IMG/VR virus record: IMGVR_UViG_3300020171_000105 | Coordinates: 1 to 28,284 of that record | Length of the DNA: 28,284 nucleotides | Source of the DNA: a virus | Strand: one strand, 5' to 3' | In this document: positions 1,583 through 26,387 of the stretch, piece after piece | Position numbering within the stretch: position 1 is the stretch's first letter | Layout of the letters: each line of letters begins with the position of its first letter | Notes under the pieces: generated by a model | Seen by the model: the letters and a program-made list of their open reading frames with translations, nothing else | What the model was told of the DNA's origin: nothing | Database searches by the model: none | Position numbers and translations under genes: made by a program

Positions 1583-4036
1583 TTGACGACACCAGGGCAA
1601 GCAGCACCGCAGAATGTAGTCTGGTTTCCGCAGGCAGGACCGCAGACGGAAGCCTGTCTATGCCCTGTTGATGTCATTAAGTTTGGTGGTAGCCGTGGAA
1701 GTGGCAAGTCGGATGTATTGCTTGGAAGACAGTTTTTCGGAGCCATAACTTACGGTCATTTATGGAATGGATTAATAATCAGACGCAAATATAAAGACCT
1801 GAAAGAATTAAGGCGGCGCATAGCAGGACTTATCAGAAACGGACTCCCGGCCGAACTTGTTGGCGGTGAACAGCAGACGAATGTTTTAAGATTCAAAAAC
1901 GGCGGTCTCGTAACAATCACGGCTATGCAATATCAAGAAGCCCTGAATGACTGGATAGGCCACCAGTTTGTTGAAATCTCAATCGACGAGGCCCCACAAT
2001 TACCATTTTTTACAACCGCTATTGATAAACTAAGAGGCTCCTTGCGTTCTGCCGGTGGAGTCAGAGGACATATTTTCTGCACCGGAAACCCAGGCGGTCC
2101 GGGACATGGACAGGTCAAGAACTTCTTCAGGCTCGGATCGGGCGGCAATCCGCCTAAAGTTCCCTTCTTTGTAGAAACGGAACATAACGGAATTATACAT
2201 CGTGAATCAAGGGTTTACATCCCGTCTTTTCTTACCGATAACAAAATCTTGTGTGACGCAGATCCGCAGTATGTCTCTCGCCTCGCAGCCATTTCAGATC
2301 CCGTATTAAGGAAAGCATGGCTTGATGGCGATTGGGATGTGTTTATCGGTCAGGCTTTCGAAGTTACCAGCAAGCACATCATACCAAATCAACCGGTTCC
2401 GGAATTCGCACCAATATATATGACTTACGACTGGGGTTTCGGGAAACCTTTTTCGATAGGTTGGTGGTGGTCTGACAGAGAGAACAGGCTTTACAGATTT
2501 GCTGAATGGTACGGATATAGCGGGAAAGAGGATGACGGCTTGAGGATGGTTGATTCTGCCATCGCTGATGGGATTATCGCAAAAGAACATGAATTGGGAA
2601 TTGAGAGCAGGGTTCAAATCAGGCTTTGCGATCCGACTTCATTCAACAAAAGAGCCGATACTTACGGCGGAGGGCAGGGGCCTTCAACCGCAGATATATT
2701 TGCGGAAAAGGGAATCCCCTTAACCCCTGGGGACCCAAACCGAAAACTCAAGATCAGGGCGGTCAGGGAAAGACTTGCAATACCGAGAGACGGAAGCCCG
2801 CCGATGATGATGGTTTATGAGAACTGTTCTCACTTTATAAGAACGATTCCTCAGCTTGCGATTGATGAAGAGAATCCGGAGGAAATCGATGATGGCCAAG
2901 AGGACCATTGCCTGCACGGAGGAACATTAATTGAGACAGAACAAGGGTCTATCCCTATAAAAGAATTGGTTAATAAAAAAGGGAAGATACTGACAGCCGG
3001 TGGATATTGGACTGATTTTTCTGATTGTAGATTAACAAGAAAAGATGCAGATGTTGTGAAAGTGGAATTTGAAAATGGGAAAGTGGTAACTTGCACTGAT
3101 GACCATAAATTCTTTACTAAAACAAATGGATATATAAGAGCAAGGGACTTGACAAATGAAACATGCCATATTAGTATAAGCCTCAACCAACATTTAAAGG
3201 AGGCTACTATATGGAAGTCAAGATTATTAACGAAACAACGCAAGAGTTTGATGGTAAAAGATATTGGTTATGCGGTTTCTATTTTCAAAGAAAAGGTGTT
3301 AGATTGCATCGAGTTGTTTGGGAATTTTTCAATGGTAAAATTCCTAAAGGAGCTCATTCCCACCATAAAGACGGAAACCGTTCAAACAATCAACCAGATA
3401 ATATTATGCTTAAATCTGCAAGTGAACACATGTCTTTGCATGGTAAAAAGAACGATCACACAGCATGGATTGAGTCTATGCATTCCGGGGCTGTTGCATG
3501 GCATGGAAGCGAACAGGGCATTGAATGGCATAAGCAGCAATATCAAAAACACTGTAAAAACAAAATGCATGTTAAGGAAAGTAAGCTCTGCGAATATTGT
3601 GGTGAACCATACGAAGGGTTATCATTCAGCAAATATTGTTCAAGAAAATGTCAGCAACGAAAATGGCAAAATAAAAACCGCAAATCCGGAACATGTTCTA
3701 TGTGCGGAAACGGCTTTATCGGATTCGGGAAAACTTGTTCAAGTTCTTGTGCAGCAAGAAAAACGTGGGCAACTCGTAAAGGCAAGGAGCGTTAAACCAG
3801 CCGGGAAAGCCGATGTTTATTGTTTGAATGCCGCTGATACACATGCGTTTTGTGTTGAAGGCGGCATTCTTGTTCATAACTGTTACGATGAATCCGCGCT
3901 TATAGCCATGTTTTTTACGGTGCCGATGCTCGATATAAAGCCAAAGAAAACACAGGCGGAAATTGATTGGGAAATTATTACTGGCGTTAGAAGCAGCGGG
4001 ACACAAAGTTCGGCGGCTTTTATAGCAAGCGACTGA
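1583..4036 (+). CDS. terL: Terminase large subunit (TerL) interrupted by an intein
   Basis: The 817-residue precursor should splice to 493 residues (1-442 plus 767-817), a normal TerL length. It is the packaging ATPase and headful or site-cutting nuclease. Seen: Walker A GGSRGSGKS (35-43), Walker B ending SIDEA (D135, E136), and coupling motif CTGNPGG (166-172). The RNase H-like nuclease motifs are TYDWGFG (D283), RLCDP (D350) and DH/CYDE, with D441 just before the intein. The start is TTG at 1583. It is the only plausible start after the in-frame stop at 1547 and has GAGG about 9 bases upstream. The intein parts the third catalytic Asp-His from the following CYDE, so unspliced protein should lack nuclease activity. 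Flanking terL sequence is more GC-rich (35 of 60 in 2041-2100) than the intein. Confidence 0.96.
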   Translation: MTTPGQAAPQNVVWFPQAGPQTEACLCPVDVIKFGGSRGSGKSDVLLGRQFFGAITYGHLWNGLIIRRKYKDLKELRRRIAGLIRNGLPAELVGGEQQTNVLRFKNGGLVTITAMQYQEALNDWIGHQFVEISIDEAPQLPFFTTAIDKLRGSLRSAGGVRGHIFCTGNPGGPGHGQVKNFFRLGSGGNPPKVPFFVETEHNGIIHRESRVYIPSFLTDNKILCDADPQYVSRLAAISDPVLRKAWLDGDWDVFIGQAFEVTSKHIIPNQPVPEFAPIYMTYDWGFGKPFSIGWWWSDRENRLYRFAEWYGYSGKEDDGLRMVDSAIADGIIAKEHELGIESRVQIRLCDPTSFNKRADTYGGGQGPSTADIFAEKGIPLTPGDPNRKLKIRAVRERLAIPRDGSPPMMMVYENCSHFIRTIPQLAIDEENPEEIDDGQEDHCLHGGTLIETEQGSIPIKELVNKKGKILTAGGYWTDFSDCRLTRKDADVVKVEFENGKVVTCTDDHKFFTKTNGYIRARDLTNETCHISISLNQHLKEATIWKSRLLTKQRKSLMVKDIGYAVSIFKEKVLDCIELFGNFSMVKFLKELIPTIKTETVQTINQIILCLNLQVNTCLCMVKRTITQHGLSLCIPGLLHGMEANRALNGISSNIKNTVKTKCMLRKVSSANIVVNHTKGYHSANIVQENVSNENGKIKTANPEHVLCAETALSDSGKLVQVLVQQEKRGQLVKARSVKPAGKADVYCLNAADTHAFCVEGGILVHNCYDESALIAMFFTVPMLDIKPKKTQAEIDWEIITGVRSSGTQSSAAFIASD
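3193..3199 (+). promoter_or_regulatory. Candidate -1 slippery heptamer T-TTA-AAG
   Basis: In the TerL/intein frame the codons are TTA (3194-3196) and AAG (3197-3199), preceded by T3193. This matches the X-XXY-YYZ pattern. A -1 slip gives TTT AAA and enters the HNH frame, which is open from 3175. The result would be a TerL-intein N-half fused to the endonuclease. I see no clear downstream pseudoknot, and seven-base matches can occur by chance. Confidence 0.25.
3196..3203 (+). promoter_or_regulatory. Internal ribosome binding site AAAGGAGG for the nested HNH gene
   Basis: AAAGGAGG ends 7 bases before the ATG at 3211, an optimal strength and spacing. It lies inside the intein coding sequence, where it reads as Lys-Glu-Ala. 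Its presence is the main evidence that the HNH frame is translated independently rather than being a frameshifted piece of the intein. Confidence 0.85.
3211..3795 (+). CDS. HNH homing endonuclease nested out of frame inside the TerL intein
   Basis: The 194-residue protein lies wholly inside the intein but one frame back from it. Residues 31-77 form an HNH_3-type domain: RLHRVVWEFFNGKIP leads into HSHHKDGN (H51, H52), the NN pair (59-60), N64, then SEHMSLH. The segment AVAWHGSEQGIEWHK is typical of free-standing phage HNH endonucleases. Two C-terminal zinc-binding units follow: C127/C130/C143/C147 and C162/C165/C176/C180. The start is set by AAAGGAGG 7 bases upstream; the frame has a stop at 3172. 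The gene begins just after splicing block B and ends with TAA at 3793 where the C-terminal splicing part starts. Its likely role is cutting intein-less terL alleles to spread the intein by recombination. The target site is unknown. Confidence 0.9.
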   Translation: MEVKIINETTQEFDGKRYWLCGFYFQRKGVRLHRVVWEFFNGKIPKGAHSHHKDGNRSNNQPDNIMLKSASEHMSLHGKKNDHTAWIESMHSGAVAWHGSEQGIEWHKQQYQKHCKNKMHVKESKLCEYCGEPYEGLSFSKYCSRKCQQRKWQNKNRKSGTCSMCGNGFIGFGKTCSSSCAARKTWATRKGKER

Positions 4037-4747: not shown

Positions 4748-5773
4748 ATGAATAAAACCTTGTCAATAATCATCGGCCTGATCCTCATAGTGGCCTGCAT
4801 ATATAGGGTGCCAAACTCTATTATGCGGGCCTCTATGGAACTTTCTGCCGTTGTCGGGATCTCGTTGATATTGGCTATCTGGCTTGTCGACAGGGTAAAT
4901 ATCTGGCTCGGAGTGTTTGTTCTTCTGGCCGTATTCTCCCATGTTTATCCGGTTTATAACGCCGCTGGATACAAGACTTTGCACAATATCCTGATCGCTT
5001 CAGGTTTGCTTCTCTTTATGAGCTATAGGCCTGAATATTTTGAGCATGTCTTCGATGTTCTGCTGATTGTTGCAGTGGTGAATTTAATCGTTATCGGCTT
5101 CGACTTACTGAATATCCATGTTCCATACCGAATGTTCTGGGGTGCTGACTGCGAAGGCGTAACGGCAAACAGGAATGAATCTGCGGCGCTTTTTGCTTTC
5201 GCATTGCCGGCCGCTTTCCGGAAAGGCAGGGGCTGGGTTATCCCCCTGATCGTAATCGGGTTGATACTTACCCGAACTTCCGGCGCCGCAATAGCAATTA
5301 TGGCAGGCATTATAATTTATTGGAAACTCAAGGGATATCGTTTTTTGTTCTGGTTTATATTGGCCAGTGCGCTCGGATTCCTTCTGTATATTCTGTTTGT
5401 TGACACCGCCTCGGTTGAATCCCGATGGGTCATGTGGGGCGGCGTTATGGAAGCGATAAAGCAAAAACCTCTGCTCGGATGGGGTCTTGGTCAATATCCG
5501 AATGTTTATAACCATAGTCCGCATAACGAGTTCTTGAGAATGGTTTTTGAAATGGGTTTCGTTTCGGTTCTGATTCTGGCCGGATATGTTGCAACCAGCA
5601 TATTGAAACTTTGGGGAGAGGAAATATCAGACAATAAAATACTTTGCATAACAGCTCTCGTTATAATTGCTGTAAATTCATTTATAAGTTTTCAGCTTCA
5701 TATCGGAGTTACGGCTTTAATGTCACTGTTATGGCTTGGAAAATTTGAGGGGGGTGTTCGTGATAACAGTTGA
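4748..5773 (+). CDS. O-antigen ligase/polymerase-like membrane protein (Wzy_C type)
   Basis: This 341-residue integral membrane protein has roughly nine to eleven hydrophobic segments. Its second half carries the Wzy_C signature. R226 and W230 (SRWVMWGGVMEAI) precede PLLGWGLGQY (241-250), then HSPHNEFLRMVFEMG (256-270), as in WaaL O-antigen ligases and Wzy polymerases, where a large periplasmic loop holds catalytic Arg and His. GVTANRNESAALFAFALP (137-154) is the family's upstream conserved loop. The likely substrate is an undecaprenyl-linked surface polysaccharide in the inner membrane. Known seroconverting phages such as Pseudomonas phage D3 carry an O-antigen polymerase, so changing the host surface to block superinfection is plausible here. 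Its place between terL and portal suggests late expression. The ribosome binding site is weak (TAGGTAG). Confidence 0.8.
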   Translation: MNKTLSIIIGLILIVACIYRVPNSIMRASMELSAVVGISLILAIWLVDRVNIWLGVFVLLAVFSHVYPVYNAAGYKTLHNILIASGLLLFMSYRPEYFEHVFDVLLIVAVVNLIVIGFDLLNIHVPYRMFWGADCEGVTANRNESAALFAFALPAAFRKGRGWVIPLIVIGLILTRTSGAAIAIMAGIIIYWKLKGYRFLFWFILASALGFLLYILFVDTASVESRWVMWGGVMEAIKQKPLLGWGLGQYPNVYNHSPHNEFLRMVFEMGFVSVLILAGYVATSILKLWGEEISDNKILCITALVIIAVNSFISFQLHIGVTALMSLLWLGKFEGGVRDNS

Positions 5774-19631: not shown

Positions 19632-22600
19632 ATGCCTGTTATTGAAATACCCGATAAACAGATGGTCGTTGACTTTCCGAACACCATGACCGCACAGGAA
19701 ATCGAAACGGCTATTCAGGGCGAGATATACGGCCAGAGGGAAAAATCTGCCCCGATTGTTTCTGTTCCCAATACCCCTGTGCCCCTTGATTATGGGTTAA
19801 GGGCAGACGGTACACCCAAAGGAACAGGTTGGCTCGGAGAGTTAAAAAGACCTGACGGAAAAGTATCGACCGAACTTTCAATAGGCGTTGAATTTGATGG
19901 AAAAGAAAGAGAAATACCCGCCCTTGTTCCGACATTAATAAAACCTGAAATCGACCATCTTCTGTCAGGAGCCAAACCCACAGACGCGATTGTAAATAAG
20001 GCAGTAGCATTTGCAAGGCAAAGAATCTCTCAAGGTAAGAGTCCTTTTAAGGAACAACCAAAGATCGCCGCTTCCGACAGATTTAATCCGGCTATTTCTA
20101 CCATTGCCCGGAGAGCGGAGAGGGGCGCACAGGAACAGGCAGACCAGCTGGGCGCTCCAATTTCAACTATTACTGGGAAACCGATACCGACAACAGATGA
20201 AAAGTTTGAGCAGACGGCTTTCATGCGAGATGCACCGGCGTCAGCTATTGGAATATTGGGTGGAATAGGCGCTCAAGCACTTGGCGGATATACCGCTCTT
20301 TTAAGATTGGTATCAACAGGCGATCTTGACAAGGCAAAGACAGTTCTTGACGAGATAAGCGCACAGCCAGCCAAGTTCATTAAGACCCCACAGCAGGCAA
20401 AGGTGGTTGAGAACATCAGTAAGGCCATGATGTACCTCCCGGAGAAAGGCGGAGAAGCCCTTGCATGGATGGGGAAAATCGCAGACACCGAACTTCAGAA
20501 GATGGGATCAGCACCAACATACCTTGAACCTACCGGAAAAACAATCGGGGAAGCCGCCGTTATTCTGGCTTTCCCTGCCCTGAAAGCCAAGATTGCAAAA
20601 TCAAACTGGTTCAGGATGTTGGCAAACGAGGAACGCGGACTCGTAGTTCAATCCCTTGATAATGCCATTAAGATGAATCCGAAAATGACCGAGGGCGAGA
20701 TCCTCCGGAAATGGGATAATCCGCAATGGAGAGAGGAAGCCTTATCAAAAAGAGCCACAGGCGAAACCCCACAATCAGGAGCCTCCGCCGGAACGCCCGC
20801 ACCGAAACCATCACCGACAGACGGACTGCCCCCCGAAGAAATTATAAGAAGGACAGAAATACTCGAATCGCAGGCAGCCAAAGGAATTAAGCTGACCCCG
20901 AAGCAGGAAGTGAATCTTAATGCGTATAAGTCGCTTATTGCCGAAAGAATAAAACCGACAATAAGCAAAGAGGATATTACCCCGACAATGGCTGGCCCCC
21001 TTCTTGGCCGGGAACCAATTCAAAGCGTCCTACCTAAAACCATCGACACCTCCTCGGTGGAAACCACGCAGACAGTTCCCGGCCAAGAACCTATTTCGCA
21101 AACCCCCAAGAAGCTGATGAACATTCCCGTAAATATCGTTGAGTCAAAAACAGAAAACGGGGTCAGTCACGAACTTTATAAAGCGGCCTCTGAAAAAGAC
21201 AATCGGAGTTTTTATCGTATTTTTGATACCGAATCGGGGAAGGCGGTAGGCGTAAAGGGTTATCCGACACTCGAAGCGGCAAAACGGGCGTATGAAAGCG
21301 TAGACGCGTCCGCTACCCTTACGGCAGTAAAGGTTGGCGAGGAGCCTTCGTCAGAAGCCCCCACAATAGAGCAAACCGAAAAGGCGGGTACGGATAAGGC
21401 TGCTGAAACGGAAGTTCCCGATCTTGACGCCCTTGACCTTATGGCGGTCGATATTTTGAACACCAAAGGTAATGAAAGAGGCGATTATGGAGAAGGAACC
21501 GTGCATCAAATCGGAAGTTCAAACCCAGAATGGTTCAAGAAGCTGAACAAGTCTATCGACTTTGAACATTTCAACGGCGAGAAGACTGTTAAATATGATG
21601 GCATAAGCCGAGACACCTTCTTTGCTATCCAGAAAAAGATTAAGGCCAAAGGCGTTGACTCTCTGACTGAGATTCAGAAGCGATATTACTTTTTCATTCA
21701 ACAGGTGATCCCCGATTTCAAAGCCCAAAGTTCAGACTTTAAGGCGATGGACGACCTTGCCTTCATGGAAGAGAAGGGTTACGAGCCTCTTGGCGGTAAA
21801 AAGATTATCGCAGGCGACCTGAAAGATGGCGACAAGGTTATTATCCGGGGAGAGGAATTTGAAAACAAGGGTATGAACGCAGACGGAACCATGACCCTTG
21901 AGGATGGCATACCGATTAAGGTTGATGTGTTTGACGAGATTACCATTGAGAGGATTAAGAAAGCTCCAATACCCGAAATGCCGGAGGAACTCAGAAAGAA
22001 AATCGAGGAAGCGGCAATAAAGGCAGGCGGCAGGCTCGACTACACAAAAGATGGTAAGCCGGGATATGCACACGACAGGGGAACTTTCAGCGTAACCGAT
22101 TTAAGCATGCCGGGGAATGAGACCTCTTTTGATGTGAGAACGCCGGAAGAAATTGCAGGGAAATTCGCGGAGGCCAGAAAAGCGGCGGAGAAAGCAAAGA
22201 CCGAAACCCTTCCCGAAGGTTTAACCGTCAACTGGAATAAAGTCGAAACCAAAGTCAAGGACGGCGTAAAAGGGACATATTACGCTACTTACAATAAAGA
22301 TGGCTCGTTTAAGAAATGGCACACAAAGACCGAGATTGACCGTCTAAAAACCCTCAAGGGAACCGAAGGGCTTAATTTAAAGCAGGATAGTTACGGCAAA
22401 CAGACCGGAGTAACCGGGAAGGAAACCAAAGGGAAACAGGCTGGATTCGGGTTTGTTGTTGAAGATCCGAGTCAACCGGAGATGTTCAGTCAAGAACCTC
22501 CTCCTGCAAGTAAGGTTAAGGCTGCTGAAAAGAAACCTGAAAGCCCAGAGGAATTTAATATAGGTAATTTCAGCGATAAGCCGGTCACAATGCAGATGCC

Positions 22601-25600
22601 GGAACTCGTTCAGCTATTCAAAGAACTATCTCAAGGCAAGTATCCCCAGATCACGAAAATCATAGGCCGTTCACTTAGAACTCAGGGCGCCTTTAATCCT
22701 GTTACTGGCGGAGTCAGATTACAGAAAGATATCTTTGCTGATCAGACCTGGGCTTTAAAGGTACTCGCGCATGAGATAGGCCATTGGATTGATTGGATGC
22801 CAGATAAGAATCTAAGCCGAGGAAATATACTCGGCAGGGTCGCCTCTCTCAAGGGATATATGGATCATTGGCTCGATGATATCTATGGCGGTAAAGGACG
22901 TATCACGGATGCCGACAAGAAGTTTTTTAAGAGGGAGGCTAAAAAGCTGGCAGGCGGTGAAAGATGGATTGATGAGGTTATCGAAAAGACACTCCCGATC
23001 ACTCCGGACGATATCCTTGATATCTGGAACTCCGGGTTACCGAAAGAAGCCCTTCATGCTGGCCTGCTTGATTATATCATGCGCCTGGATACCGCAGAAA
23101 AGAAAGCCATCGTTGTCGCTGCAATGAAAGGAATTATCCCGGATGATGTAAAGCAATTCGCCCGGATCGCCAAAGAATACACAGGCAAGAAAATCAAGGT
23201 TAAGATTCCTGCAAGCGATCAGGCTATTATGGATAAATACAAGGAGTTGATTGCGGAAGAACTCAAAAAGAGGAACATCTATAACCTTGACGAGATCAGG
23301 AACGAGCTTAAAGCCTTCACGCAGGAATGGAAACCTTTCGAACCCGACGGAGATCCGACATACACGAAATATCGGTTCAGCGGCAAAGAGCTTTACGCAG
23401 ACGCCATGAGCGGCCTCTTGACGAACCCGGACGCTTTCAGGGTTGTAGCGCCCAGGTTCTATTCGGCATGGTTCTCATGGATACACAGGAAGCCGGAATT
23501 TAAGTCGGTATGGGAAGCTTGGCAGAATAAAATAAGTGCTGGCTCCGAAGAAGTTACCAAAGAGCGTATGCAGAACATATACGATATGTTTGAAAAGAAC
23601 GACAAAGCCCGGATTGATGAACTGATGAAGCAGCGCGAAGGCTCGATTGTATCTGCTTATGACGGCTTAATGACATATTTCTGGGATAAGAATCACAAGG
23701 CGCTCGGACTATTACGGACTTTAAAGAAAGAGAAAGGCGTTAATGCGGATCATGCAACAGAAACAAGGAATATGATCGAAGAAGCCAACTATATCGCCAG
23801 CGAAATAAGCGTATATGTTGGAGATATCTTTGAACATATTATGAATCCGATTGAAGCTATGGGGTATGACGCAAAAGAACTCGGACTCGTACTTTTCCAG
23901 AAAAGGGTTTTAGGTGATAGATCAGAGATCGGGAACCCGCTCGGTCACTCCCCGGAAACGACAACAGTTGATATCAAGAACATTGAGGATAATATCTGGG
24001 GCAAGGAAAAAACAAAGGCGATTAATGATTTTGCAGACAAGTTAAGATCCATAAGAGAAAGCCTCGTCCTTCCCTTGGTGCAAGAATCGGGTTTGGCAAC
24101 CCCTGAATTTATGGGAAAAATCAAGGATACCAAATCATATGCAACCTTCTCCAATATCGAATGGTTTAAAAACAAAGGGGGTTCCGGCCCCGGAGCTGGA
24201 TTCTATCGGCAGATAGGAACGCTTAGCGAGATAGAGAATCCGCTTGTTTCTTTGATATTAAAAGATATCAGCCTTGTCAGGGCGGCGCGAATAAACATTA
24301 CAAAAAGAGAGCTTTCAATAGACCTCTATCATGCCGGAGCGATTGAACAGGCAAAAATGCGATGGAGTAAGGATGCCAACGGCAATGTACCGGTTGAGCC
24401 GACAGACCCTAAAAAATCCCCGTATTCCTTTATGGTTCAGGGTAAAGCAGAGCATTATTATGTCAGTAAGAAAATAGCTGATATGTTTGCATATGCCCCG
24501 GTTGAAGCTCAACAGCTTGCAACGATATGGAGATATTTATCACAACCGATACGCGAAATATTCGTTTCAAAGAATCCGATATGGATGACAAGAAACGTAA
24601 TCAGAGACGTTCGGCAAACGATTAAAAATATTCCGGAAGTTACACTGAAAGATATTCCGAAACTCTTGCTTGAATATAAAAGGGCTTTCAATGAAGTCCG
24701 AAGATACGTATTTGGAAAAGAAATGTCTCCCGCTATTCGTCAACTGTTTTTAGATAAAGCAATTCCAGTAAATAGGATATGGGCTGGATTTGACGAAACG
24801 ACCGAATCCGAACTTGACAGAATTGGTATCTCTTTGGACTTGTCGAGAAAACAGAATCTTGATTCCGCCATAGCGATAAGAGCAATAAAAAGTTTTTGGG
24901 ATGCTTTGGACAAGGTCGGCATGATATCTGACATATGGGGAAAAGTTGCTGGCGGAAAATATCTCAAGAAGTATTCGGATAGAACTCCAAAGCAGATAGC
25001 CGGCGTGGTAAGGCGCAGAGTTGGAACTCCTGATTATAAAAGGACTGGCACAGGGCAACAGATTACAAACAGCGTTGCTCTGTTTTCCAATATAGGCAAG
25101 GAGGGTGTTCGGGCAGCAATAGAATCTGCAACCGAAGATCCGGGCGGATACGCATGGAAAACTCTTTGGATGAATGTAATGCCGAAGCTCATTATTAACG
25201 CTCTTGGTTCAGGGGCTATTTTATGGGGCATGAATAAACTCGGATATGACGATAAAGACGATGAAGATATCAAGAAAGTCAAAACACTTCAAAGGGTTAT
25301 TGAGGGCATATCTGAATACGACAGGGCAAACTATACGATTATACCGCTTGGTTTAACTGATAGTGGAAAGTCGGCTTTCCTGAGAATCCCGGAAGACTAC
25401 GAAGGACAGTTCTGGGGGGCTCTTGTTCATAAATTAATGACGGGAAGGATTTTGGGGCATGAAGGAGTTTTTAACCTTATTGGCGACCAATCCCCATATA
25501 GTTGGCATCCCTATATTAATGCAATATCCAGACTGTCGGCATATTATGTTAAAGGACAAAATCCAGTCGATGATTACCGGGGCCGGAGCATTATGTCAGA

Positions 25601-26387
25601 CGCAACGTACACGGCAGGTGGAGCGGCGGCACATAAGGTGATGGCAAAATCAACATGGAAAGAGCTCGGGGGTAGCCTGATATATGAACCTGCATGGGAT
25701 GGACTTGAAAAGAGCGAGAAATCATATGAGAAAGCACTTCATACATTTCCCTTAAGTGCGCTTGGAACATTTTTAAGGTTTTCAGATCAAGGTATTACGG
25801 AAAAGATTGAGAAGGAAATCTCCAGAATCAGACAGACCAAAGCGAAACAGACTCTTGAAAAGAACGAGGCCTTTATTCGTCTGGTAAACGGCGAAGAACT
25901 GACCCCGGAACAGACCCTTGAAATTTTAATACAAAAGAAAGACGTAAGGCAAGACAAGATAATGTCATTGCTTGGTCGAAAATATGGCGGTGCTTATTTA
26001 CGCCAATTAACAAGAGCCGATTTATCTAAGGAAGAAAAAATAGCTGTTTTTATGATGATGATTATGGGGCAAGCTGAAACGCCAACAGAAAAGCCGGCAA
26101 CGCCACCCGAAAGCAAAGTCCCCGGCGAAATGAACATCCTGGGTCTTTCCTTACCGGGAACCCCGGATAAGAAACGTGCTATGCGCCAGGACAAAATAAA
26201 CGATTGGTCGGATAGATATTTGTCAGCCTCTAATAAGAAGGATGCCCGGTCTTTGGATAAAATCAGAATGGAACTCATGGAATTCAACAGGGCGCAGAAA
26301 GAAAAGAAGGCTTTCGGGATTACAATTAATATGTCCGATGTGATTCAATCGGCTCAAAGAAAGAAGTCTGTTTCAGGGCTACAATAA
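19632..26387 (+). CDS. Giant polyvalent ejection-type protein with HEIGH metallopeptidase motif
   Basis: The 2251-residue protein begins one base after the preceding stop (TAAATG). Residues 1-33 (MPVIEIPDKQMVVDFP) and 55-140 match N-terminal modules of large phage polyvalent proteins; the second opens GLRADGTPKGTGWLGELKRP and ends RISQGKSPF. Pro-rich linkers follow near 380 and 450. Around 1035-1255 is a probable zinc peptidase: VLAHEIGHWIDW (H1047, E1048, H1051), with E1253 in KELYADAMSGLL as possible third ligand. The last 700 residues hold conserved helical segments such as FNLIGDQSPYSWHPYINAIS and a hydrophobic stretch near 1850-1875 (MPKLIINALGSGAILWGMNK). The likely role is an internal virion protein injected with the DNA, able to cut a host or virion protein. 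No lysozyme or transglycosylase motif was seen. The N- and C-terminal halves may be processed apart. Confidence 0.75.
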   Translation: MPVIEIPDKQMVVDFPNTMTAQEIETAIQGEIYGQREKSAPIVSVPNTPVPLDYGLRADGTPKGTGWLGELKRPDGKVSTELSIGVEFDGKEREIPALVPTLIKPEIDHLLSGAKPTDAIVNKAVAFARQRISQGKSPFKEQPKIAASDRFNPAISTIARRAERGAQEQADQLGAPISTITGKPIPTTDEKFEQTAFMRDAPASAIGILGGIGAQALGGYTALLRLVSTGDLDKAKTVLDEISAQPAKFIKTPQQAKVVENISKAMMYLPEKGGEALAWMGKIADTELQKMGSAPTYLEPTGKTIGEAAVILAFPALKAKIAKSNWFRMLANEERGLVVQSLDNAIKMNPKMTEGEILRKWDNPQWREEALSKRATGETPQSGASAGTPAPKPSPTDGLPPEEIIRRTEILESQAAKGIKLTPKQEVNLNAYKSLIAERIKPTISKEDITPTMAGPLLGREPIQSVLPKTIDTSSVETTQTVPGQEPISQTPKKLMNIPVNIVESKTENGVSHELYKAASEKDNRSFYRIFDTESGKAVGVKGYPTLEAAKRAYESVDASATLTAVKVGEEPSSEAPTIEQTEKAGTDKAAETEVPDLDALDLMAVDILNTKGNERGDYGEGTVHQIGSSNPEWFKKLNKSIDFEHFNGEKTVKYDGISRDTFFAIQKKIKAKGVDSLTEIQKRYYFFIQQVIPDFKAQSSDFKAMDDLAFMEEKGYEPLGGKKIIAGDLKDGDKVIIRGEEFENKGMNADGTMTLEDGIPIKVDVFDEITIERIKKAPIPEMPEELRKKIEEAAIKAGGRLDYTKDGKPGYAHDRGTFSVTDLSMPGNETSFDVRTPEEIAGKFAEARKAAEKAKTETLPEGLTVNWNKVETKVKDGVKGTYYATYNKDGSFKKWHTKTEIDRLKTLKGTEGLNLKQDSYGKQTGVTGKETKGKQAGFGFVVEDPSQPEMFSQEPPPASKVKAAEKKPESPEEFNIGNFSDKPVTMQMPELVQLFKELSQGKYPQITKIIGRSLRTQGAFNPVTGGVRLQKDIFADQTWALKVLAHEIGHWIDWMPDKNLSRGNILGRVASLKGYMDHWLDDIYGGKGRITDADKKFFKREAKKLAGGERWIDEVIEKTLPITPDDILDIWNSGLPKEALHAGLLDYIMRLDTAEKKAIVVAAMKGIIPDDVKQFARIAKEYTGKKIKVKIPASDQAIMDKYKELIAEELKKRNIYNLDEIRNELKAFTQEWKPFEPDGDPTYTKYRFSGKELYADAMSGLLTNPDAFRVVAPRFYSAWFSWIHRKPEFKSVWEAWQNKISAGSEEVTKERMQNIYDMFEKNDKARIDELMKQREGSIVSAYDGLMTYFWDKNHKALGLLRTLKKEKGVNADHATETRNMIEEANYIASEISVYVGDIFEHIMNPIEAMGYDAKELGLVLFQKRVLGDRSEIGNPLGHSPETTTVDIKNIEDNIWGKEKTKAINDFADKLRSIRESLVLPLVQESGLATPEFMGKIKDTKSYATFSNIEWFKNKGGSGPGAGFYRQIGTLSEIENPLVSLILKDISLVRAARINITKRELSIDLYHAGAIEQAKMRWSKDANGNVPVEPTDPKKSPYSFMVQGKAEHYYVSKKIADMFAYAPVEAQQLATIWRYLSQPIREIFVSKNPIWMTRNVIRDVRQTIKNIPEVTLKDIPKLLLEYKRAFNEVRRYVFGKEMSPAIRQLFLDKAIPVNRIWAGFDETTESELDRIGISLDLSRKQNLDSAIAIRAIKSFWDALDKVGMISDIWGKVAGGKYLKKYSDRTPKQIAGVVRRRVGTPDYKRTGTGQQITNSVALFSNIGKEGVRAAIESATEDPGGYAWKTLWMNVMPKLIINALGSGAILWGMNKLGYDDKDDEDIKKVKTLQRVIEGISEYDRANYTIIPLGLTDSGKSAFLRIPEDYEGQFWGALVHKLMTGRILGHEGVFNLIGDQSPYSWHPYINAISRLSAYYVKGQNPVDDYRGRSIMSDATYTAGGAAAHKVMAKSTWKELGGSLIYEPAWDGLEKSEKSYEKALHTFPLSALGTFLRFSDQGITEKIEKEISRIRQTKAKQTLEKNEAFIRLVNGEELTPEQTLEILIQKKDVRQDKIMSLLGRKYGGAYLRQLTRADLSKEEKIAVFMMMIMGQAETPTEKPATPPESKVPGEMNILGLSLPGTPDKKRAMRQDKINDWSDRYLSASNKKDARSLDKIRMELMEFNRAQKEKKAFGITINMSDVIQSAQRKKSVSGLQ

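What the first reader, a model, noticed from the sequence alone, without database searches (positions are those of the whole stretch)
2909..3880. HNH homing endonuclease gene nested out of frame inside a complete intein
Seen: a full set of splicing motifs (Cys443 block A, TDDH block B, DTHAF block F, HN-C block G) in the terL frame. Between them lies a complete HNH plus double zinc-finger protein one frame back, with AAAGGAGG 7 bases before its ATG. The HNH gene starts just after block B and stops where the C-terminal splicing half begins. Known: intein endonucleases are normally fused in frame and released by splicing. Inferred: here a free-standing-type HNH gene invaded a mini-intein and is translated separately, so the endonuclease level is uncoupled from splicing, as in group I introns with their own endonuclease genes. 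I do not know whether this arrangement has been reported.
Basis: partly seen in the sequence, partly recalled or inferred. Interest (0 to 1): 0.92.

Follow-up and report, generated by a model that had tools for sequence, protein, structure and literature searches.

The report
Intein hiding an out-of-frame endonuclease gene
A self-splicing protein insert in a phage DNA-packaging gene carries, in another reading frame of the same DNA, a complete DNA-cutting-enzyme gene; the same trick recurs in dozens of unrelated phages, so it is a real and widespread way of building a mobile intein.

Summary
Confirmed, and much bigger than reported. The terL ORF (1583-4036) holds a complete class-1-type intein (2909-3880). 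In the -1 frame inside it lies a 194-aa HNH/double-zinc-ribbon gene (3211-3795) with AAAGGAGG 7 nt before its ATG. I collected about 160 related HNH loci. Where both intein halves flank the HNH, the HNH is out of frame in 81 distinct loci (68 at -1, 13 at +1) and sits between split halves in 25. None of these is in frame; the only in-frame case is a distant PolA intein. The terL frame stays open by selection: GC-matched expectation 451 stops, 0 observed in the -1 class, with Met and stop-making codons depleted. Its amino-acid sequence in the overlap is unconserved and predicted disordered, while the HNH frame is conserved and predicted well folded. Free-standing homologues sit just behind intein-less terL genes. 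Best explanation: a terL-targeting homing endonuclease gene invaded a terL intein, is translated on its own, and makes the intein mobile. Closest published precedent: the out-of-frame HNH 'ShiLan domain' (PMC11855218), which has no splicing domain; a related preprint on non-canonical actinophage inteins could not be read. New variant of a known kind. Splicing, HNH expression and cutting are untested.

The parts
1583..2908 (+). terL N-extein (terminase large subunit, residues 1-442)
   Evidence: PHROG phrog_2 terminase large subunit E 3e-29; tblastn to intein-less terL genes 51-59% identical up to residue 442
2909..3880 (+). complete intein in the terL frame, 324 aa, C1 ... HN|C
   Evidence: NCBIfam intein_Nterm, Pfam Intein_splicing; invariant C1, T63, H66, N324 in 18 nested inteins; HINT fold
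2909..3175 (+). intein N-terminal splicing half (blocks A, B)
   Evidence: HMM E 2e-31 (this sequence was among the model's seeds); AlphaFold2 block pLDDT about 87-96
3191..3721 (+). terL-frame stretch antisense-free but overlapping the HNH gene: open, not conserved, predicted disordered linker
   Evidence: pLDDT below 50 for intein residues 95-271; terL-frame identity no higher than in the unused frame
3196..3203 (+). Shine-Dalgarno AAAGGAGG, 7 nt before the HNH ATG
   Evidence: sequence; equally strong sites in the nearest nested relatives
3211..3795 (+). HNH endonuclease gene, 194 aa, -1 frame, HNH_3 domain plus two CxxC..CxxxC zinc ribbons
   Evidence: Pfam HNH_3 E 6e-17, phrog_15471 E 4e-33; pLDDT 92.6 over 194 aa; best solved relative I-HmuI 1u3e
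3776..3880 (+). intein C-terminal splicing half (blocks F, G); its first 20 nt overlap the HNH 3' end
   Evidence: HMM E 4e-19 (among the seeds)
3881..4036 (+). terL C-extein (CYDES..., 51 aa plus stop)
   Evidence: empty-site relatives read EDH|VYDEA without an intein
3193..3199 (+). TTTAAAG, a possible -1 slippery heptamer overlapping the Shine-Dalgarno sequence; probably incidental
   Evidence: 7 of 68 nested loci have one, 6.3 expected

Best explanation
The locus is a mobile intein made of two genes that share DNA. (1) Shown by sequence: terL encodes a complete intein that should splice itself out of TerL; where a canonical intein has its in-frame endonuclease, this one has a stretch that only has to stay open and acts as a flexible linker. 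(2) Shown by sequence: the same stretch encodes, in the -1 frame, an intact HNH/zinc-ribbon endonuclease under protein-level conservation. (3) Inferred: the HNH is translated independently from its own Shine-Dalgarno site and ATG on the terL mRNA, so its amount is set by initiation and not by intein splicing. (4) Inferred: the HNH recognises and cuts intein-less terL near the DH|xDE site, and repair from the intein-bearing copy spreads intein and HNH gene together. (5) Inferred: it arose when a free-standing terL-targeting HNH gene, a form that still exists just behind terL in other phages, moved into a terL intein, i.e. collaborative homing made permanent.
For: Window anatomy. Recurrence: among HNH loci flanked by both intein halves, 68 distinct at -1, 13 at +1, 25 with split halves, no in-frame case in terL; at 80% HNH identity and strict intein motifs 62, 11 and 22. 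Selection for an open terL frame: 0 stops against shuffled means of 2.2 (-1) and 9.3 (+1), while split (7.3 vs 7.1) and free-standing (5.9 vs 5.7) genes match shuffles; GC-matched 451 expected, 0 seen; Met 0.8% against 1.4-1.8%, NTA/NTG leucine codons 48% against 66-69%, ATA 14% against 31-43%. HNH frame is the conserved protein: third positions change 1.9-2.0 times as often as first and second; terL-frame identity 42% equals the unused frame's 41%. Structure: HNH pLDDT 92.6 throughout; intein halves mostly about 87-97, overlap about 30-43; HINT fold matches DnaB, NrdJ-1 and RecA inteins. Mobility: closest terL relatives (51-59%) are empty at the exact site. Origin: free-standing homologues lie 36-95 nt downstream of the empty site in 6 of 6 loci whose terL end was recognised, and 9 of 10 further ones have a terL gene immediately beside them. 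Start codon is co-linear with free-standing genes.
Against: No expression, splicing or cleavage data. The +1 clade and some -1 clades show no Shine-Dalgarno site, so independent initiation is not shown everywhere. The window alone gives P=0.175 against its own codon shuffle. Nested status is defined by an open frame, so the test rests on the comparison with split, free-standing and +1 classes. Direction of change on the HNH tree is unrooted.
Confidence: 0.87

Rival explanations
1. The HNH is made by programmed -1 ribosomal frameshifting from terL, giving an IntN-HNH fusion and not a separately started protein.
For: The HNH is in the -1 frame and a TTTAAAG heptamer lies at 3193-3199 just before the HNH start.
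Against: Slippery heptamers are not enriched: 7 of 68 loci against 6.3 expected, and 0 of 13 in the +1 clade, where -1 slippage would not reach the HNH frame. Strong Shine-Dalgarno plus ATG in the window's clade. The start methionine is co-linear with free-standing HNH genes.
Confidence: 0.05
2. Decayed or mis-sequenced canonical intein: indels near 3200 and 3790 put an originally in-frame HNH out of frame.
For: Two compensating indels would give this picture in a single genome.
Against: The same frame offset in about 68 distinct loci from independent assemblies including named phages (TJE1, Highwayman, LS06); both frames intact in all; a second clade at +1; no in-frame relative in terL.
Confidence: 0.01
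3. Split (trans-splicing) intein with the HNH gene between the halves, as in fractured genes; the open frame is chance.
For: 25 relatives, e.g. Lactobacillus phage CL2 and Vibrio phage 1.245.O, have exactly that.
Against: In those the frame across the HNH has 2-13 stops; in the window and nested relatives it has none, against 451 expected.
Confidence: 0.02
4. The HNH is a packaging factor (as HK97 gp74-type HNH proteins next to terL) and not a homing enzyme; it was caught in the intein by chance.
For: HNH proteins beside terL are part of packaging machines in some phages (Kala 2014, cited in PMC12613952); the free-standing homologues also sit beside terL.
Against: Best solved relative is the homing enzyme I-HmuI; presence is patchy and repeatedly tied to intein or terL end; close terL relatives of the window have an empty intein site.
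Confidence: 0.05

Closest known systems
ShiLan domain / Pacc40 insertion: out-of-frame HNH in phage methylase genes (Arsenault, Gosselin, Gogarten 2025, PMC11855218)
   Same: A 195-aa HNH with flanking zinc fingers in the third frame of an insertion that keeps the host frame open; disjunct distribution; a free-standing HNH relative upstream of an uninvaded methylase in other phages.
   Different: No splicing motifs, so the insert is thought to stay in the methylase; no detectable Shine-Dalgarno site, leaderless GTG start proposed; methylase, not terL. Here a full intein surrounds the gene and a strong Shine-Dalgarno site is present.
Fractured genes with split inteins and a free-standing endonuclease between the halves (Dassa et al. 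2009; recalled, the paper is not held)
   Same: Separate endonuclease gene between the two intein halves; some relatives found here (25 split loci) have that layout.
   Different: In the window the intein is one uninterrupted ORF (predicted cis splicing) and the endonuclease gene overlaps it in another frame.
Canonical mobile TerL inteins of mycobacteriophages (Kelley et al. 2016, PMC5050341)
   Same: Inteins in terL, splicing competent, with endonucleases that cut intein-less terL.
   Different: Those endonucleases are part of the intein protein and the inteins lie in the ATPase domain; here the endonuclease is out of frame and the site is near the terL 3' end.
Group I introns with their own HNH gene (I-HmuI type)
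   Same: Endonuclease gene translated separately from a self-removing element; I-HmuI is the best solved relative.
   Different: Removal is by protein splicing, so the host frame must stay open through the endonuclease gene; no Rfam intron match in the window.
Actinobacteriophage inteins with 'non-canonical architecture' (Gosselin et al. 2025 preprint, cited in PMC11855218)
   Same: Unknown: may include out-of-frame endonucleases in inteins.
   Different: Could not be read; possible prior art for the general layout in actinophages.

Membership tests
Intein | Blocks A, B, F, G with catalytic residues (C1, TxxH, HN|C) | tested here: met
Intein | HINT fold | tested here: met
   AlphaFold2 halves mostly at pLDDT 87-97; Foldseek to DnaB/NrdJ-1/RecA inteins E 1e-6 to 1e-4
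Intein | Insertion at a conserved site of a host protein; empty alleles exist | tested here: met
   EDH|VYDEA in terL 51-59% identical
Intein | Actual protein splicing | not testable with these tools
   Needs expression of the precursor
Canonical mobile intein | Homing endonuclease domain fused in frame with the splicing domain | tested here: not met
   HNH lies in the -1 frame; no in-frame case in terL relatives
Split intein / fractured gene | Intein halves on separate ORFs | tested here: not met
   One ORF 1583-4036; met in 25 relatives
ShiLan-type insertion | HNH out of frame in an insert that keeps the host frame open | tested here: met
   definition from PMC11855218
ShiLan-type insertion | No splicing domain in the host frame | tested here: not met
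   Complete intein motifs
HNH homing endonuclease (I-HmuI type) | HNH motif and sequence/structure kinship | tested here: met
   HNH_3 E 6e-17; 1u3e sequence E 0.001, fold E 0.03, weak
HNH homing endonuclease (I-HmuI type) | Site-specific cutting of the empty allele | not testable with these tools
   Needs a biochemical assay

The most novel reading that the evidence does not exclude
Out-of-frame nesting is the normal architecture of a large family of terL inteins in phages of many bacterial phyla. It is the bridge from free-standing homing endonuclease genes beside terL to split inteins: free-standing gene, then dual-coded intein, then, once stops enter the host frame and trans-splicing takes over, a fractured gene. 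Selection acts on the host frame only to keep it open, to the point of shaping the amino-acid composition of the endonuclease.
Probability: 0.5. Interest if true: 0.85.

Novelty: new variant of a known kind. Interest (0 to 1): 0.76.

Why it matters
It shows a second way to make a mobile intein, in which the endonuclease is a separate overlapping gene, so splicing and homing can be regulated and can evolve apart. It supplies a natural series of free-standing, nested in two different frames, and split forms in one gene family, which makes the origin of inteins with endonucleases and of natural split inteins directly testable. It is also a clean case of de novo dual coding where one frame is selected only for the absence of stops, and it warns that annotation pipelines miss these genes: the nested HNH is unannotated in Tetrasphaera phage TJE1 and Acinetobacter phage Highwayman.

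Tried and rejected
Sequencing error or decayed in-frame intein: rejected by recurrence. Chance openness: not excluded by the window's own codon shuffle (P=0.175) but rejected with independent codon usage (P=0.003) and at family level. Programmed frameshifting as a general mechanism: slippery heptamers not enriched. RNA intron: no Rfam match in the window. Protein-level conservation of the terL-frame insert: none beyond that of an unused frame. A weak PHROG 3450 match to the terL frame over the zinc-ribbon stretch (E 0.04) was not pursued. Literature: two searches found nothing or nothing relevant; Dassa 2009, Gorbalenya 1998 and the Gosselin 2025 preprint are not held. A terL-end profile recognised only 6 of 31 free-standing loci, so neighbours of ten others were scanned with PHROGs.

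Full report
What is there. The terL ORF runs from 1583 to 4036 without a stop. In its frame, residues 443-766 (nt 2909-3880) form a complete intein: Cys1, block B TDDH, blocks F and G ending in HN followed by Cys+1. In the -1 frame, nt 3211-3795 encode a 194-aa protein that matches HNH_3 (E 6e-17) and PHROG 15471 'HNH endonuclease' nearly end to end (E 4e-33), with two zinc ribbons. AAAGGAGG stands 7 nt before its ATG. The gene begins 36 nt after the N-terminal splicing half ends in the profile match and its end overlaps the C-terminal half by about 20 nt. No Rfam intron is present in the window.

Is it more than chance? Using codon usage from six other stretches of the window, the HNH protein would put on average 4.5 stops in the terL frame, P(open)=0.003. 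Shuffling the gene's own synonymous codons gives P=0.175, because its codons are already adapted. So the single window is suggestive; relatives decide.

Relatives. Related HNH genes were collected from phages, viral contigs and bacterial genomes and each was classified by intein-half profiles and reading frame. The profiles were seeded with twelve loci, the window included. After removing duplicate loci there are 68 with the HNH nested at -1 in one uninterrupted ORF with both intein halves, 13 nested at +1, 25 with the halves on separate ORFs and the HNH between them, and 31 without intein halves. With one representative per 80% HNH identity and strict intein motifs the counts are 62, 11 and 22. 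The only in-frame case is a distant HNH in what looks from its C-extein like a DNA polymerase I gene (L251). Nested hosts are nearly all terL, most often at the DH|x-D-A/E-x-RY motif near the 3' end; L253 and L259 lie at another terL site and L221 in a portal gene.

Selection on the two frames. In nested genes the host frame has no stops by definition, so the comparison is with the other classes. Split and free-standing genes have the number of stops their codons predict (7.3 vs 7.1, 5.9 vs 5.7). The -1 class has 0 against 2.2 with its own codons, and the +1 class 0 against 9.3 in its own host frame while the other frame has 10.5 against 8.6. A GC-matched expectation from free-standing and split genes is 451 stops over the 68 -1 genes. 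The adaptation is visible in composition: Met is 0.8% in the -1 class against 1.4-1.8% in split and free-standing genes, leucine codons ending TA/TG are 48% against 66-69%, ATA 14% against 31-43% of isoleucine codons. Third positions of the HNH frame change 1.9-2.0 times as often as first and second positions, as in split and free-standing genes (2.1-2.3). In the overlap the terL-frame protein is no more conserved (42%) than the unused frame (41%). So the HNH is the conserved protein and the terL frame is kept open but not conserved.

Structure. AlphaFold2 on the terL-frame intein gives block means mostly between 87 and 97 for residues 1-90 and 291-324 and below 50 for 95-271, with Foldseek matches to DnaB, NrdJ-1 and RecA inteins. 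The HNH frame gives 92.6 over all 194 residues; [quoted passage not shown] The same DNA thus encodes a predicted disordered linker in one frame and a predicted compact enzyme in the other.

Mobility and origin. The closest terL genes (51-59% identical) have an empty site, EDH|VYDEA, where the window has EDH|intein|CYDES, so the distribution is patchy as for mobile inteins. Free-standing homologues lie directly behind terL: 36-95 nt after the empty site in all six loci where my terL-end profile matched, including PAE1, SN1, FBPa53 and Poludnitsa, and 9 of 10 further ones have a terL gene beside them. Their start codon aligns with that of the nested genes. On an unrooted tree of 125 HNH proteins the -1 nested form needs 13 changes (at least 8 by well-supported branches) and is interleaved with free-standing genes; the +1 form is one clade; the split form needs 9 changes. 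The simplest history is repeated movement between the terL flank and the terL intein; its direction is not shown. In 21 of 25 split loci the C-terminal half keeps the same frame offset to the HNH as in the -1 nested class while the N-terminal half does not. That would fit descent of split forms from nested ones, but the overlap of the HNH end with that half also constrains it.

How it is translated. Independent initiation is favoured in the window and its nearest relatives by strong Shine-Dalgarno sites. The +1 clade and some -1 clades lack one. Slippery heptamers before the HNH are not enriched (7 against 6.3 expected), although the window has TTTAAAG at 3193. Initiation is therefore inferred, not shown.

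What is known. An out-of-frame HNH of the same size and make-up, in an insert that keeps the host frame open, was described in 2025 in phage methylase genes as the ShiLan domain, explicitly without splicing motifs or a Shine-Dalgarno site (PMC11855218). Canonical TerL inteins with active endonucleases are known in mycobacteriophages, in the ATPase domain (PMC5050341). Collaborative homing of a free-standing endonuclease with an intron is described, and its origin called unclear (PMC10448857). Split inteins with an endonuclease gene between the halves are known as fractured genes (recalled; paper not held). A 2025 preprint on actinophage inteins of non-canonical architecture could not be read and may overlap. 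I found no held paper describing a complete intein with an out-of-frame endonuclease gene, but the full-text search covers only open-licence papers.

Verdict. Observation confirmed and interpretation supported, with splicing, HNH production and cutting untested. It is a new variant of a known kind (a mobile intein whose endonuclease is an overlapping out-of-frame gene), and it is widespread.

Noticed in passing
window 4748-5773: A 341-aa membrane protein with an O-antigen ligase domain (Pfam Wzy_C, E 8e-9) sits between terL and the next structural-type genes; unusual place for a surface-polysaccharide gene in a phage.
   Followed up: partly
window 19632-26387: A single ORF of 2251 aa with no Pfam match, about a quarter of the window.
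   Followed up: no
L221 1200-3500: A nested out-of-frame HNH-like ORF inside an intein of a portal gene in an Asaia astilbis contig: the arrangement is not confined to terL.
   Followed up: partly
L253 and L259: Nested HNH-containing inteins at a different terL site (W|CDE..AW, probably Walker B).
   Followed up: partly
L261, L262 (Vibrio phages 1.245.O and 1.238.A): Cultured Schitoviridae phages with the HNH, unannotated, between a terL ORF and a separate 'hedgehog/hint domain' ORF: looks like the split form.
   Followed up: partly
L089 (Tetrasphaera phage TJE1), L090 (Acinetobacter phage Highwayman): The whole nested ORF is annotated as terminase large subunit only; intein and HNH are not annotated.
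   Followed up: yes
PHROG 30251: This 'terminase large subunit' family profile is matched by L160 across N-extein, intein and C-extein, so the profile seems to include a nested intein.
   Followed up: no
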